In this document: positions 2,459 to 23,352 of the stretch, piece by piece
How positions within the stretch are numbered: position 1 is the stretch's first letter
How the letters are laid out: the number at the start of each line of letters is the position of its first letter
IMG/VR virus record: IMGVR_UViG_3300042860_003435
Location: 1-23,352 of that record
Source: a virus
Strand: one strand, 5' to 3'
DNA length: 23,352 bases
The notes under the pieces: model-generated
What the model saw: only the letters and a program-made list of their open reading frames with translations
Told to the model about the DNA's origin: nothing
Database searches by the model: none
Position numbers and translations under genes: made by a program

Positions 2459-3162
2459 TAAATTTGTCTCACAATAACATAATCAACTGTAGAAACATCA
2501 TTTGTTTCAGCGGTTGCATCTGCTGGTTTTCTTGATGTAATAACAAAGTTTGTGTTGGGTGTAATTGCAAAAGTTAATAAACCTAAAGCTGTCGATGCGT
2601 TAATATTGCTTACTGATAATAAAATCCGATCAGTTGCTTGAATGTTTGTATTGGCAATTGTAACTGTTCCAGCCGTAAGGGTTGCTTGACCGATAAAGTC
2701 AGTAGCTGCACCACCTTTACATCTTAATGCTTTACCTGATCCTGAGACAGATATATTACCATTTGTAGCGCTCAAATCTGTTCCAGCTGTCAATGTGGTT
2801 GTTGTAGCCAAAGAACCTGGGGCTGTAACTGCTACTGGTAATGAAAGGGTTACTGTAGATCCTGCATTTGCTACACCAATTTGGTTAGATGTACCTGCAA
2901 CAGTAATGTTTCCAGAAGTAGGATTTAAGTTATTGATAGTGAGAACATCACCACTTGATGATCCTAATGCAATCCATACAGCTTGATTATTGACCACTCC
3001 ACCAGATGCATAAATTAATTGTGCTACTTCATCTAAATAAAATGTGCCAGGTGCTCTTTTCAAAGCTGCTGTAGGGGCACCATTCCCAACAATAATTGAG
3101 AAAGAATTTTCAGCAAATCCGCCTAATTTTGTAACATAAGGGACGTTTACGTTTACTGCCAT
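2458..3162 (-). CDS. Modular tail fibre-like protein
   Basis: I chose the ATG at 3162 (MAVNVNVPYVTKLGGF), preceded by AAAGG; an upstream TTG at 3192 would add ten residues with no better ribosome site. The protein then has 234 residues. Its N-terminal 55 residues match the N-terminus of the protein at 1418-2215 (GAP, then GTFYLDEVAQLIYASGG). The remainder is Thr/Ala/Gly/Asn-rich with alternating hydrophobic residues, consistent with beta-helical or beta-sandwich fibre structure. The C-terminus is AETNDVSTVDYVIVRQI. It probably forms a short fibre or appendage attached through the shared N-terminal module. Copy B of the 37-bp repeat lies 20 nt upstream of the start. Confidence 0.7.
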   Translation of the reverse strand: MAVNVNVPYVTKLGGFAENSFSIIVGNGAPTAALKRAPGTFYLDEVAQLIYASGGVVNNQAVWIALGSSSGDVLTINNLNPTSGNITVAGTSNQIGVANAGSTVTLSLPVAVTAPGSLATTTTLTAGTDLSATNGNISVSGSGKALRCKGGAATDFIGQATLTAGTVTIANTNIQATDRILLSVSNINASTALGLLTFAITPNTNFVITSRKPADATAETNDVSTVDYVIVRQI

Positions 3163-3182
3163 AAAAAACCTTTTTTTGTTTG

Positions 3183-3219
3183 AATCTATCAAACATCTCG
3201 ACTTTTGGCTACTAGTTGA
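3183..3219 (-). repeat. 37-bp direct repeat, copy B, upstream of a fibre gene
   Basis: This is the partner of 2244-2280, of equal length and with about five mismatches, mostly in a four-base central patch. It fills nearly all of the gap between the stop of the KTSC-domain gene (3220) and the start of the fibre gene (3162). Confidence 0.7.
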
Positions 3220-3831
3220 TTAACTTATTTTTTGGTAAGGAAAACCTAAGTTTTTGATGTGTTGATTTAACGCTGCACCTAGACTTGGTTTTTTACCTTT
3301 CCACCAAGCACCAAATTTATTGGAACCTTGAGTTTTTGCCATTGAGGCACCATTCATGAATAATTTCGCTATAGTGCTGGGAACATTGTCATATTTATAG
3401 ACCCCATCGCCTTGGAACTTTACAAACAATCTTTTGTTTTTTGGACTGTATTTAAAACCGTACACAGTTGAGCTTTGAAGGCCTGATTGTGGTATACCTG
3501 CCTCCTCACCCTTGGAAATCTGAATACTGCCTTGTAGCTTATTTAAAGCATTGTCAAGGGTTGTTTTGTTTGCAGCTATGCGATTGATGTTTGCGTCAGG
3601 GACTTGTTTTGCGTATTTTGCAAAAGCCTTGGGGTCTCCTCCTGCTAATAGGTAGAGAAATTCAGCACCTTTTGGGATGCGATCTTCTTCTGAAACCAAT
3701 TCCTCGGAAACTCTTTCTCGTGCAAGACTTAACGTGTCTTGTACTACTTTGAACTCTTCAGGGGATAACTCATTGATGACGGATGGGAGTTGTTCTATGA
3801 GTTTACCTAGTATTGGCTTCAGATCTACCAT
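3220..3831 (-). CDS. KTSC-domain virion-associated protein
   Basis: The 203-residue protein has an acidic helical N-terminal half (LSPEEFKVVQDTLSLARERV) and a C-terminal half, residues about 118-195, that resembles the KTSC domain. Visible elements are SSTVYGFKYSPKNKRLFVKF, then GVYKYDNVPSTIAKLF and a GASMAKTQGSNKFGAW stretch; the family has the same order of S-S-x-x, Y-x-x-x-x-x-x-L-x-V-x-F, Y-x-Y-x-x-V-P and A-S. The domain is found in phage and bacterial proteins, and its biochemical role is not established. The ATG overlaps the previous stop by one base (TAATG). Context among internal-protein genes suggests a virion or ejection-associated protein. Confidence 0.65.
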   Translation of the reverse strand: MVDLKPILGKLIEQLPSVINELSPEEFKVVQDTLSLARERVSEELVSEEDRIPKGAEFLYLLAGGDPKAFAKYAKQVPDANINRIAANKTTLDNALNKLQGSIQISKGEEAGIPQSGLQSSTVYGFKYSPKNKRLFVKFQGDGVYKYDNVPSTIAKLFMNGASMAKTQGSNKFGAWWKGKKPSLGAALNQHIKNLGFPYQKIS

Positions 3832-13129: not shown

Positions 13130-13727
13130 TTACGAAAGCGTTGAGTTAAGTAGGAATACCCAGGCATCGTTGGTGATAACACCAGCATAGGCCATCTTCC
13201 ATCCCACTGTTGCGTTAAGCGCTAGTGGTGAAGAGAAGATTGGTGGTCTATAGATGAACGAAGAGCTATAACGATCTTGTTCAACGATACAGTAGGACTC
13301 TCTACCGATTACGATTAGTGGATACACATCCGCACCGTTTGCAGAAGCGTTAGGCAACTTGGCTCCAATTGAGGAGAGCAAGAAGCGAACGTTCGCAATC
13401 GCACCATACTCTGCTGGCATAGTGGATTGGATGGATGGGTAGTTCCATTTGTAGGTAAATTGGGGAATGTTTTCGAACTGACTTTGCAATTGAGTCGAAC
13501 CCATCGCTAGGTAAGAGTCTCTGGTGGGGCTTGTTCCTATACGATTTTCCCCGATGATACCGTCCATAAACTCGTACGCATTGTTGCTACGAAGTTGTTT
13601 AACTGTATTCACTGTATCAGAGAATGTGAGTTCTGTGGGGTTATCACCGTTTGATCCACCAGTACAGTTTACCTGTGACATAGTAGAAAGAAGACGATCT
13701 CTTGTGAGTTCATCCTCTGTTTGTCTG
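13130..13727 (-). CDS. Major capsid protein, exon 2 (N4-gp56-like)
   Basis: This is the 3' exon of the major capsid gene, joined to exon 1 (14929-15278) by removal of a group I intron. The joined gene is 948 nt and encodes 315 residues; the junction restores a Leu codon (CT/C) and reads LGVSL-RQTEDELTRD. Exon 2 begins RQTEDELTRDRLLSTMSQVN, then CTGGSNGDNPTELTFSDTVN and NNAYEFMDGIIGENRIGTSP, and ends with FIYRPPIFSSPLALNAT and VFLLNSTLS. These features match the N4-gp56-type coat protein family (conserved Q-T-E-D-x-L-T-R-D, G-x-N-G-D-x-P-T-E, IYRPP and S-P-L). The frame is also open upstream through the intron to 14830, but that part is not capsid-like. Confidence 0.88.
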
Positions 13728-13873
13728 CTTTCTGTTACTTTCAGCCAATGCTTACTGACCAATTTTTTTAATTGGCGGAAGGTCTTGTTATTCCCTTCTC
13801 CTAATTTTTCAATTAGGTTCGGACTATCGCATACACTTTTTACAGTGTCTCTACCGCTTAGTCTCTGCGGGTC

Positions 13874-13902
13874 TTGACATAATCTCTGTTTGTCGTCATA
13901 AT
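13874..13902 (+). promoter_or_regulatory. Sigma70-like promoter for the antisense endonuclease
   Basis: TTGACA (13874-13879, perfect -35) is followed by a 17-bp spacer and CATAAT (13897-13902, five of six for -10). The predicted start of transcription, 13908-13910, is only 3-5 nt before the ATG at 13913, so the mRNA would be leaderless or nearly so. The -35 overlaps DNA encoding a paired stem of the intron core. Confidence 0.65.
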
Positions 13903-13912
13903 CCACGATATC

Positions 13913-14836
13913 ATGGAAGAATTTAACAAATTTTCTTATCTTGCTGGCTATGTAGATGGTGATGGCTGCTTTTATTTGGGTACAACGATTCAAAAACCTA
14001 AAAATATTATTGTTTATGAAAGTTCTATACAAATTTTGTCTGTAAAACCTGAAGTTCTTTATTGTTTTAAAGAAAATTTCGGAGGTTATGTAAGACAAAA
14101 ACCGCAAAAACTTAACCACAAAACTCCGTACGTGTGGACTATCAAAAATAAATTTGCTTTTGATCTTGCTAAACTCATTAGCGACCATCTTACAGATAAA
14201 AAAATCAGCTCTCAAATATTTATTAAAATGGCACACAGGATTAAACCTAATTGTGGGATTTCCATTTCTATTGAAGAGCATGAAATAAGATTGAAAATTA
14301 TTAATGCAATTAGAGAGGAAAAATCTATGAATGATTTCATTGATGAAGAATTTGTCCAAAACATGAAAAATACTGTTCAATGTAAAACGCCCACTTCTAA
14401 AGACTTTGCATATTTTGCTGGTCTTATGGATTCCGAAGGTTGTTTTCGTATTAAAACTTGGAAACCTAAAACCAAACCCAACAAGGTTTATGCAATAAGT
14501 ATTGAAATTGGTAATACTCGTAAACCAATTTTTCCTTTTTTGATAGAAACATTCGGAGGCTCTATTCAATATATTCATCCAAAATCCAAAAACAAAAAAC
14601 CATTTGCTTTGTGGACTCTCTCCGCAGATGCCCTTTTCAAAATTCTTCCTAATATCTATCCGTATCTCATTAGCAAAAAAGAAGTTTGTGCAAAACTCAT
14701 AGAGTTTCAAAAAACTATTCTTTCTAATGGAGGTGATAGGCATTCCGAAAGTTTTCGAATTCTCTATGAAAAAACTCGCATCATTCGGGATAAAATTATT
14801 GAAGAGGTTCATCTTCTTAACTCTAAAGGTTCATAA
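13913..14836 (+). CDS. Two-motif LAGLIDADG homing endonuclease, antisense in the intron
   Basis: The 307-residue protein carries two LAGLIDADG motifs: LAGYVDGDG at residues 10-18 (catalytic Asp17) and FAGLMDSEG at 168-176 (catalytic Glu175). It is therefore a monomeric, two-domain enzyme of ordinary length that would cleave an intronless capsid allele and promote intron spread. It is encoded on the strand opposite to the intron and capsid transcript. The ATG lies 3-5 nt after a predicted transcription start, with no Shine-Dalgarno site. Each domain also has a conserved-looking GG-Y/I strand (ENFGGYVRQ, ETFGGSIQY). Codon use is unlike its neighbours: by eye none of its 21 Leu codons is TTA or CTA, and only the last Ser is TCA. 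Confidence 0.9.
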   Translation: MEEFNKFSYLAGYVDGDGCFYLGTTIQKPKNIIVYESSIQILSVKPEVLYCFKENFGGYVRQKPQKLNHKTPYVWTIKNKFAFDLAKLISDHLTDKKISSQIFIKMAHRIKPNCGISISIEEHEIRLKIINAIREEKSMNDFIDEEFVQNMKNTVQCKTPTSKDFAYFAGLMDSEGCFRIKTWKPKTKPNKVYAISIEIGNTRKPIFPFLIETFGGSIQYIHPKSKNKKPFALWTLSADALFKILPNIYPYLISKKEVCAKLIEFQKTILSNGGDRHSESFRILYEKTRIIRDKIIEEVHLLNSKGS

Positions 14837-14928
14837 TTTTTATCAAGTTCCCTCTGGTTGTCATAGGCTATGCAGCCCTTAGATTTTCCAAGGTATTCAG
14901 GTAAAGTTTATTGTCGCCCATAACGTTA

Positions 14929-15278
14929 AGCGACACTCCAAGCCTTTCCGCAGCTGCGTTAAGGACGGGATCTTGTCTTTGCAGTGTAACTTGCTCATTT
15001 AATTCTACGTAAGTTCCATAGAATCCTACGACCGCATCAATGTTTACAGCGGTTAATTGTTGAGCTGGGGGAGTTTGTCCCGAATTACCGATTGGCACAA
15101 GTGCTGCTGCCAATGGGTTATATCTGGTCATCCTCAGAGTTGTTCCACCATTTGCCGGCATGGTTCTATAGTCCGCACCGATTGTATGGATGAAATAAGG
15201 CACAGGAGTACTGAGCAATTTCATCGAAAATGATAGAAGAACTTGAGGAGGCAGTGTTGAAGTTGTTGTAATAGACAT
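14929..15278 (-). CDS. Major capsid protein, exon 1 (N4-gp56-like)
   Basis: This is the 5' exon of the major capsid gene, from ATG at 15278 (MSITTTSTLPPQVLLSFSMK) to the first two bases of a Leu codon at 14929. It encodes 116 residues plus two bases and includes MPANGGTTLRMTRYNPL, YGTYVELNEQVTLQRQDPVL and the final NAAAERLGVSL, which matches the N-terminal part of N4-gp56-type coat proteins. Without splicing, translation would continue 20 codons into the intron and stop at TAG 14868, giving a 136-residue fragment that lacks the capsid core. AGAGGT lies ahead of the ATG, 15 nt after the scaffold stop. Splicing is therefore needed for a functional capsid. Confidence 0.88.
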
Positions 15279-21874: not shown

Positions 21875-23352
21875 TTAAAACATTTGCTGTCCAAGCGGGA
21901 AACGATCTGTGTCAAAAATTGCGGGCATTGAACGTTGTTCTTCTACTTGCTTACGTGTGTCCGCAAAGTACTTTTTATATGCATTGCAGAGATAACGGAA
22001 GCCGTCTGAATTACTGACTAATAAATCATTTGCAAAATAGCAATGATCATTTTCAACTGTAAAGTCATATACTCTTATTTTGTCTTCTGTGTTTAACTCC
22101 ACAACTTGTTGAACATGTAATGTTTCTAGAATATTTATTGATTCTATATCTTCTAAAACAGATTTTACATTCACGTTCTTCAAGATCTGTTTTGTTAATT
22201 CTTCTAAATTGAGATTTGCAATTATTTGAGCAAAATTTTCCGTGTTTTGTTTTTGAAATGTATTTGGTTCGACAAACTTCACATTCATGTTCTTGACTGT
22301 AGTTTTTTCCAAAATTGCATCTAATTGCGTGTTGTTTATGCCATTCAATCCCTTTTTCACTTTTATGCCATTCTGGAGCTTTTGCAATAGCAAATTTAAT
22401 AGTTTCTCTACTTCTTCTAATATTTTCATCTTTTTTTGAGTGATAAGATAAATGTTTGCTTTTTTCAATAGATTGCAAATTGCTGATATCGTTGTTTCTA
22501 GTGTTTTCATCAATGTGATGAATGTGATGTCCATCTTGGATTTTTCCGTAGAAGTGCTCGTGAACAGATCTATGTAAATACAAGCATCCTTTACGCCATC
22601 TACCAGCTTTGTAATATCTACCATCCCATCTGTATTTTCTGTCTTTGAAAAAAATGACCTCATCATCATGACTAATAAAAAATAATCCCTGAATCCTAAC
22701 CCAAGTTTTTTTATGTAAAAAGAATTCGTCCATATTTTCTGTGCTTCAATTATCTTATCATTGTATCTTAAAGCATCAGCACTTACAAGACCATTCGTAG
22801 TAAAAAATTTATGTGAAGGCGTACAAATAATTTCCGATTTATTTGTTATAATTATATATAAATTGTTTGTTTCGTGAGAATGTAAACATGTAATTTTATT
22901 CGAGCCCGTAGGTGTTAAAACACTATGTCCAATTTTTAGATCTTCTATATTTATACTTCCAAAAAGTGATTGAATTCTAGTTCCTGCTACAAAACAAGCA
23001 TGGCTATGCTCGTCGTGTCGAGGGCGTTCCTCGGGTCTTCCTAAGCTAGTGTTCCATTCTCTTGAGTAGTTTGCGAGATGATCTAGACCGATCTTTGTTG
23101 TTGCTTCGTGAAAGAATGAGCGTTCAAGACAAGTCTTGACTAAGTCGATACCGTCTTGCACTGGTAGTCTATCAAGTACTGTCATATTAAGACCAAGGTC
23201 GTAAGCGATTTCTAAGCGTGTGAGACCTGTTGACATCTCATGTACTTTAGCGTCGTGGGGTACAAAGTGTTCTCCGTACACGTACCGTTTTGATTGTACG
23301 ATACGGATATTTTCAGCGAGTGATTGTCCGGACGTTTCGTGAAAATCTATGA
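21875..23352 (-). CDS. Terminase large subunit, 5' end beyond the window, intein-bearing
   Basis: Only the C-terminal nuclease part is in view; the frame is open to the right edge, where IDFHETSGQSLAENIRIVQS is read before KRYVYGEHFVPHDAKVHEMS. The GTG at 23281 is internal, not a start. The RuvC/RNase H-like nuclease features are IDFHE (first acidic position), PHDA and the final HDEHSHA-SDGFRYLC block, whose Asp is a metal ligand in the family. An intein is inserted between HSHA and SDGFRY. After splicing the protein ends YKKYFADTRKQVEEQRSMPA, then IFDTDRFPLGQQMF. The enzyme packages phage DNA with ATPase and nuclease activities; the ATPase part lies outside the window. The neighbouring portal gene supports this. 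Confidence 0.9.
   Translation of the reverse strand, partial: IDFHETSGQSLAENIRIVQSKRYVYGEHFVPHDAKVHEMSTGLTRLEIAYDLGLNMTVLDRLPVQDGIDLVKTCLERSFFHEATTKIGLDHLANYSREWNTSLGRPEERPRHDEHSHACFVAGTRIQSLFGSINIEDLKIGHSVLTPTGSNKITCLHSHETNNLYIIITNKSEIICTPSHKFFTTNGLVSADALRYNDKIIEAQKIWTNSFYIKKLGLGFRDYFLLVMMMRSFFSKTENTDGMVDITKLVDGVKDACIYIDLFTSTSTEKSKMDITFITLMKTLETTISAICNLLKKANIYLITQKKMKILEEVEKLLNLLLQKLQNGIKVKKGLNGINNTQLDAILEKTTVKNMNVKFVEPNTFQKQNTENFAQIIANLNLEELTKQILKNVNVKSVLEDIESINILETLHVQQVVELNTEDKIRVYDFTVENDHCYFANDLLVSNSDGFRYLCNAYKKYFADTRKQVEEQRSMPAIFDTDRFPLGQQMF
22065..22733 (-). CDS. HNH homing endonuclease overlapping the intein in another frame
   Basis: This 222-residue frame is offset -1 from the intein frame and lies wholly inside it. 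The N-terminal part (about 10-60) is aromatic and basic. The HNH core is GHHIHHIDENTRNNDISNLQ (68-87) with His72, His73, Asp75 and Asn85, and the later His94 and His98. Two zinc-finger-like modules follow: Cys151/Cys154/Cys168/Cys172 and Cys189/Cys192/Cys207/Cys211. The stop lies just before intein block F. An ATG at 22733 has only a weak ribosome site, so independent initiation or entry by frameshifting are both possible. It is most likely the homing nuclease that spreads the intein into intein-free terminase genes. Confidence 0.82.
   Translation of the reverse strand: MDEFFLHKKTWVRIQGLFFISHDDEVIFFKDRKYRWDGRYYKAGRWRKGCLYLHRSVHEHFYGKIQDGHHIHHIDENTRNNDISNLQSIEKSKHLSYHSKKDENIRRSRETIKFAIAKAPEWHKSEKGIEWHKQHAIRCNFGKNYSQEHECEVCRTKYISKTKHGKFCSNNCKSQFRRINKTDLEERECKICFRRYRINKYSRNITCSTSCGVKHRRQNKSI
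22706..22712 (-). other. A-AAA-AAA slippery heptamer at the intein/HNH junction
   Basis: The minus strand reads AUA AAA AAA CUU in the intein frame. Seven A bases form a perfect X-XXY-YYZ heptamer in that frame; a -1 slip gives AAA AAA ACU UGG, which is the HNH frame. No strong downstream stem or upstream Shine-Dalgarno stimulator was seen by eye. Confidence 0.5.

What the first reader, a model, noticed from the sequence alone, without database searches (positions are those of the whole stretch)
22065..22733. Intein and HNH endonuclease share the same DNA in two frames
Homing nucleases in inteins are normally inserted in frame between the splicing blocks. Here the HNH gene is offset -1 and the intein frame stays open for all 222 codons across it. 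With about 30% G+C a random frame of this length should hold about ten stops, so both frames appear to be maintained. The intein frame in this stretch has no recognisable domain and is Lys/Leu/Asn-rich, as expected for a linker forced by the overlapping HNH code. I know of split inteins with a separate nuclease gene between the halves, but not of a fully nested out-of-frame one; novelty should be checked.
Basis: partly seen in the sequence, partly recalled or inferred. Interest (0 to 1): 0.88.

Follow-up and report, generated by a model that had tools for sequence, protein, structure and literature searches.

The report
Intein with out-of-frame hidden HNH endonuclease
A phage DNA-packaging gene carries a self-removing protein insert whose DNA also encodes, in a shifted reading frame, the enzyme that probably spreads it, and 80-odd relatives in other phages keep the same two-layer layout, a design not found in the literature we could search.

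Summary
Confirmed and widened. A 329-codon class 1-type intein (22996-22010, minus strand) sits in the large terminase gene. A 222-codon HNH_3 endonuclease gene (22733-22065) lies wholly inside it, one frame back. Both frames are real. Among 129 distinct HNH relatives, 76 are nested in TerL inteins at the same -1 offset and 5 at +1. Over 14,656 codons the 76 intein frames hold no stop where about 475 are expected; HNHs in split or intein-free loci match chance. In the overlap only the HNH protein is constrained (dN/dS 0.14-0.21); the intein frame is merely kept open (about 0.85), while the flanking splicing blocks are normal. Relatives with 90-95% identical TerL lack the 987-bp element exactly, leaving an empty site. 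Seventeen relatives are 'fractured' split TerL inteins with HNH between the halves; others have HNH beside intein-free TerL. Likely mechanism: cis-splicing intein plus independently started homing nuclease. Splicing, cleavage and HNH translation are inferred. Closest known: the ShiLan out-of-frame HNH, which has no splicing domain (PMC11855218), and fractured split inteins. No out-of-frame HEG inside a true intein was found in the open-access papers searched. New variant; interest 0.8.

The parts
22997..23350 (-). N-extein: part of the terminase large subunit (TerL) upstream of the insertion site (gene runs off the window)
   Evidence: phrog_2472 and phrog_30251 matches; full-length TerL in L001
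22742..22996 (-). Intein N-terminal splicing domain (Cys1, TxxH at residues 59-62)
   Evidence: Pfam Intein_splicing E=2e-14; AF2 pLDDT above 92 for residues 1-80
22065..22733 (-). HNH_3 homing-type endonuclease gene, 222 aa, ATG start, one frame back from the intein, fully nested
   Evidence: Pfam HNH_3 E=4e-12, phrog_15471 E=6e-36, AF2 pLDDT 87, I-HmuI is the only PDB sequence match
22452..22580 (-). HNH catalytic motif (HNH residues 52-94)
   Evidence: Pfam HNH_3 stretch; invariant His columns across nested relatives
22098..22295 (-). two Cys4 zinc-ribbon-like motifs at the HNH C-terminus (C151/C154/C168/C172 and C189/C192/C207/C211)
   Evidence: invariant Cys columns in 30 nested HNHs
22130..22741 (-). 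intein-frame linker, mostly overlapping the HNH gene: kept open, no recognisable domain, low-confidence fold
   Evidence: zero stops; AF2 pLDDT mostly 30-75; intein-frame dN/dS about 0.85 in the overlap in relatives
22010..22129 (-). Intein C-terminal splicing domain ending LLVSN
   Evidence: TIGR01443 intein_Cterm above cut-off; AF2 pLDDT 82-95
21875..22009 (-). C-extein of TerL, begins SDGFRY (Ser +1)
   Evidence: uninterrupted ...HSHA-SDGFRY... in intein-free relative L283

Best explanation
A mobile class 1-type intein in the C-terminal part of the phage TerL gene, near a conserved DxxRY-type motif. The whole 987-bp element is translated as part of TerL; the Hint domain formed by its two ends splices in cis and restores TerL (inferred). 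Its homing endonuclease is not an in-frame domain but a separate HNH gene overlapping the linker in the -1 frame, translated from an internal ATG, probably at a low level (inferred). The nuclease would cut intein-free TerL alleles at the insertion site in a co-infecting phage, and repair would copy the 987-bp element in (inferred). TerL function forces the intein frame to stay stop-free; homing selects the HNH sequence. When stops enter the linker, a locus can survive only as a fractured split intein (relatives of that form exist).
For: Shown: both ORFs and domains. 76 nested -1 and 5 nested +1 relatives with 0 stops against 475 and 54 expected, and null-like counts in fractured or other HNHs. 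HNH start 212-305 nt after the intein start and HNH stop 37-85 nt before its end in essentially all nested inteins first mapped. Substitutions: in the overlap the fastest position is HNH position 3 = intein position 2 (intein positions 1/2/3: 1786/3012/1994), whereas splicing blocks show normal third-position excess (838/676/1452; 240/169/433). dN/dS in the HNH frame 0.14 and 0.21, intein frame 0.87 and 0.84. Clean empty site in relatives with 90-95% identical TerL that also lack HNH nearby. AF2: confident Hint halves, disordered middle, confident HNH; Foldseek hits are Hint/intein structures; PDB profile best hit gp41-1 intein, E=2e-20. A start codon is available in all nested HNHs tested, typically 15 nt after the last upstream stop in its frame.
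Against: No experiment: splicing, cleavage and HNH translation are unproven. Shine-Dalgarno signals at nested HNH starts are weak (29% at or below -6 kcal/mol against 13% control; 92% in fractured loci). The window's penultimate residue is Ser, not the usual His. Flank divergence around the site looks like co-conversion, but intein-free alleles also differ there, so it is not counted as evidence. Some intein-free relatives differ at the recognition site itself.
Confidence: 0.85

Rival explanations
1. Sequencing or assembly error: an ordinary in-frame HNH intein with two compensating indels.
For: Single metagenome-derived virus record.
Against: Identical element in three other contigs; same offset in 76 distinct sequences including phages TJE1 and Highwayman; an in-frame origin would leave several stops in the other frame.
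Confidence: 0.01
2. Chance: the HNH is a decayed passenger and the open intein frame is luck.
For: Shuffling this HNH's own codons leaves zero stops in about 10% of trials.
Against: HNH-frame dN/dS 0.14-0.21 in relatives; catalytic His and zinc Cys invariant; 0 of about 475 expected stops in the family.
Confidence: 0.02
3. The HNH is made as a fusion with the intein N-half by -1 ribosomal frameshifting rather than by internal initiation.
For: The HNH is in the -1 frame; slippery XXXYYYZ sites are 2.6-fold enriched near the start, in 25 of 76 loci; weak SD sites.
Against: Most loci have no such site; the last HNH-frame stop lies a median 15 nt before the start codon, leaving almost no window; five loci use the opposite offset; enrichment may reflect A-rich sequence.
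Confidence: 0.1
4. The HNH is a packaging cofactor of the terminase (as HK97 gp74-type HNH proteins are), not a homing enzyme.
For: The family sits in or beside TerL; packaging HNHs are known (Kala et al. 2014, cited in PMC10448857; not read).
Against: Close relatives with 90-95% identical TerL have neither intein nor this HNH nearby; the only PDB sequence match is I-HmuI; a related HNH is nested in an intein of another head gene (L175).
Confidence: 0.07
5. The element is retained in TerL without splicing, like the ShiLan insertion.
For: ShiLan shows that an out-of-frame HNH can sit in a translated open insertion (PMC11855218).
Against: Here both splicing blocks are present and conserved, in 28 of 32 members by Pfam, with Cys1, TxxH, terminal Asn and Cys/Ser/Thr +1.
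Confidence: 0.04

Closest known systems
ShiLan domain and Pacc40 out-of-frame HNH insertions in phage DNA methylases (Arsenault, Gosselin and Gogarten 2025, PMC11855218)
   Same: HNH gene hidden in another frame of an insertion that stays open in the host gene's frame; homing-like spread; translation start unexplained
   Different: Those insertions have no intein or intron splicing elements and are thought to stay in the protein; here the HNH lies inside a true intein splicing domain, in an essential packaging gene, in 81 distinct sequences
Fractured genes: split inteins with a separate endonuclease gene between the halves (Dassa et al. 2009; known from citations, the paper itself was not held)
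   Same: HEG is a separate gene between intein halves; gp41-1 intein is the best PDB profile match; 17 relatives here have this layout
   Different: In the window and 80 other distinct sequences the two halves stay one continuous open frame, so splicing can be in cis
Canonical HEN-containing class 1 inteins, including TerL inteins of mycobacteriophages (PMC5050341) and Mic1 (PMC7156551)
   Same: Hint fold, Cys1, TxxH, Asn, homing endonuclease between the two splicing halves, TerL host
   Different: Known ones carry the endonuclease in frame as a domain of the intein; here it is a separate overlapping gene; the site is in the C-terminal part of TerL, whereas the mycobacteriophage TerL inteins are in the ATPase domain
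I-HmuI-type HNH homing endonucleases (PDB 1u3e)
   Same: HNH homing fold, only sequence match in the PDB (E=3e-4)
   Different: Intron-encoded; the window protein adds two C-terminal zinc ribbons and is nested in an intein; the Foldseek match is weak
Collaborative homing (free-standing HEG beside an intron-bearing gene; PMC10448857)
   Same: Relatives L046 and L050 have a HEN-less mini-intein in TerL and this HNH just downstream
   Different: In the window the two parts are already merged into one element

Membership tests
Class 1 intein | N-terminal Cys, block B TxxH, C-terminal Asn, Cys/Ser/Thr at +1 | tested here: met
   C1, T59/H62, N329, Ser +1; penultimate residue is Ser instead of His
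Class 1 intein | Hint fold | tested here: met
   Pfam Intein_splicing, AF2, Foldseek
Class 1 intein | Precise insertion with an intact uninterrupted host allele | tested here: met
   L283 reads HSHA-SDGFRY without interruption
Class 1 intein | Protein splicing activity | not testable with these tools
   needs expression
In-frame HEN intein | Endonuclease is a domain in the intein reading frame | tested here: not met
   HNH is offset by -1; the in-frame linker has no domain
Fractured-gene split intein | Two separate ORFs for the intein halves | tested here: not met
   single open ORF; met in 17 relatives
ShiLan-type out-of-frame HNH insertion | HNH in another frame of an open insertion | tested here: met
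ShiLan-type out-of-frame HNH insertion | No splicing domain | tested here: not met
   intein splicing domain present
HNH homing endonuclease (HNH_3) | HNH catalytic motif | tested here: met
   PF13392 in 31 of 31 members
HNH homing endonuclease (HNH_3) | Cuts the unoccupied target site | not testable with these tools
   biochemistry needed
Group I intron | Catalytic RNA core | tested here: not met
   no Rfam match in the window at gathering threshold

The most novel reading that the evidence does not exclude
Overprinted inteins are a widespread, previously unrecognised type of composite mobile element in phages (and in contigs of archaeal MAGs): the homing nuclease is uncoupled from the intein by frame offset, expressed weakly and separately, and the arrangement is repeatedly interconverted with split inteins and with free-standing HNH genes beside TerL, making it a source of natural split inteins.
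Probability: 0.6. Interest if true: 0.87.

Novelty: new variant of a known kind. Interest (0 to 1): 0.8.

Why it matters
It shows a third way to build a mobile intein, besides in-frame and split: two overlapping genes in one stretch of DNA, one read for splicing and one for homing. It gives a natural experiment on overlapping genes in which one frame is under protein-level constraint and the other only has to avoid stops. It links free-standing homing genes, cis-splicing inteins and split inteins within one family at one site, so the long-open question of how homing genes enter inteins and how split inteins arise becomes testable. Annotation pipelines miss the nested gene: the HNH is not annotated in TJE1, Highwayman or the Rhodobacteraceae phage record.

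Tried and rejected
Group I intron in place of the intein: no Rfam hit. Blastn to phage genomes: no match, too diverged. Shine-Dalgarno search at HNH starts: weak only, does not explain expression. Slippery-site search for -1 frameshifting: enriched but in a minority of loci. Flank divergence as a co-conversion tract: intein-free alleles also differ from one another there, so not used. HNH family tree as proof of one origin: short search, many open forks, long branches; it shows several changes of layout but not their direction. Foldseek of the HNH model: only a weak I-HmuI hit. In one search loci L080 and L081 were read on the wrong strand (their HNH frame has an internal stop), so their rows there are void; one search does not have this fault. 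Dassa 2009 could not be read.

Full report
WHAT IS THERE. On the minus strand the window begins inside a terminase large subunit (TerL) gene. An intein runs from Cys at 22996 to Asn at 22010 (329 codons, 987 nt), between HSHA and SDGFRY of TerL. Pfam Intein_splicing (E=2e-14) and the TIGR01443 C-terminal model agree. Inside it, one frame back, ATG at 22733 opens a 222-codon ORF ending at 22065, an HNH_3 nuclease with two Cys4 zinc-ribbon-like motifs. The intein frame is open over all of it and has no domain there; AlphaFold2 folds the two intein ends confidently (pLDDT above 90 over most of them) and leaves the middle mostly disordered, while the HNH folds at pLDDT 87. The intein profile's best solved relative is the gp41-1 intein; the HNH profile's only one is I-HmuI.

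IS IT CHANCE. For this locus alone, random synonymous codons for the same HNH protein put on average 8 stops in the intein frame and never zero in 500 trials; permuting the gene's own codons gives 1.6 and zero in about one trial in ten. Those codons have themselves been shaped by the constraint, so the family is the better test. HNH searches of IMG/VR, GTDB genomes and phage genomes gave 129 distinct sequences. Sorted by where intein blocks lie: 76 nested at offset -1, 5 nested at +1, 17 with the two halves in separate ORFs, the rest without intein, distantly related, or cut by contig ends. Distinct sequences are not independent lineages, and the sample was seeded with this HNH family. The nested -1 set has 0 stops in 14,656 codons against 474.5 expected, the +1 set 0 against 54.3; fractured and other HNHs have 116 against 129 and 183 against 215. 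The +1 frame of these HNH genes expects about a third as many stops as the +2 frame (474.5 against 1419 in the same genes), which probably explains why the -1 nesting dominates (inference). GC of nested copies ranges from 0.30 to 0.63.

WHAT IS SELECTED. In 34 pairs of nested relatives the intein splicing blocks change mostly at intein third positions, but in the overlap the fastest position is HNH position 3, which is intein position 2. In two close pairs dN/dS is 0.14 and 0.21 for HNH and 0.87 and 0.84 for the intein frame. So the HNH protein is under purifying selection and the intein frame across it only has to remain open.

ANATOMY OF THE FAMILY. In the 51 nested inteins first mapped with an intact HNH frame, the HNH start lies 212-305 nt into the intein in nearly all and the HNH stop 37-85 nt before its end; L080 and L081 have a broken HNH frame but an open intein frame. 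Nearly all insertions lie in TerL near ...DHCxDALRY..., with Cys, Ser or Thr after the intein in nearly all. Members include Tetrasphaera phage TJE1, Acinetobacter phage Highwayman and a Rhodobacteraceae phage, where the HNH is unannotated, and contigs of archaeal MAGs (L090, L091). A distantly related HNH is nested in an intein of a portal/MuF-like gene in L175.

EMPTY SITES AND SIBLINGS. TerL relatives 90-95% identical lack the element; L283 reads HSHA-SDGFRY without a break, and none of these has this HNH nearby. Fractured siblings (L195, L057, L092, Vibrio phage 1.245.O, Brochothrix BL3) carry HNH between split halves. Other relatives have HNH just downstream of intein-free TerL, or of TerL with a HEN-less mini-intein (L046, L050). 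The tree needs 22 changes of layout against 42 for shuffled labels; direction is not resolved.

HOW IT PROBABLY WORKS. The Hint halves splice in cis and restore TerL; HNH is translated from the internal ATG; it cuts intein-free TerL alleles and repair copies the element. All three are inferred. Nested HNH starts have weak Shine-Dalgarno signals (29% at or below -6 kcal/mol, control 13%), fractured ones strong (92%), which suggests low expression in the nested form. A -1 frameshift is less likely because a stop in the HNH frame lies a median 15 nt before the start and most loci lack a slippery site.

WHAT IS KNOWN. The out-of-frame HNH idea exists: the ShiLan insertion in phage methylases, which has no splicing domain (PMC11855218). 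Split inteins with a separate nuclease between the halves are known (Dassa 2009, cited in PMC10448857; not readable here). Ten full-text searches of open-access papers found no out-of-frame endonuclease gene inside a continuous, splicing-type intein. That is not proof of novelty, since most subscription papers and preprints were not searchable.

VERDICT. Confirmed; a new variant of the intein-plus-homing-endonuclease kind, widespread and under clear selection, with function still to be shown at the bench.

Noticed in passing
window 13913-14836 (+) and 13130-15278 (-): A LAGLIDADG endonuclease gene lies antisense between two pieces of the major head protein gene; no group I intron was found by Rfam even at E<=1, and the minus-strand frame opposite it is open for about 300 codons.
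   Followed up: partly
L175: An intein in a portal/MuF-like fused head gene carries a distantly related zinc-finger HNH nested at the opposite offset (+1).
   Followed up: partly
L046, L050: TerL with a HEN-less mini-intein and a free-standing HNH of the same family immediately downstream; a candidate for collaborative homing.
   Followed up: no
L160 around 3019-3731: HNH gene downstream of an uninterrupted TerL, followed by a second copy of the TerL C-terminus; looks like a HEG insertion that duplicated the gene end.
   Followed up: no
L080, L081: HNH frame broken by a stop while the intein frame stays open: the nuclease decays, the splicing frame is kept.
   Followed up: partly
L090, L091: Nested elements in contigs of archaeal MAGs (Methanomethylophilaceae, Thermoplasmatales), suggesting archaeal viruses or proviruses carry them.
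   Followed up: no
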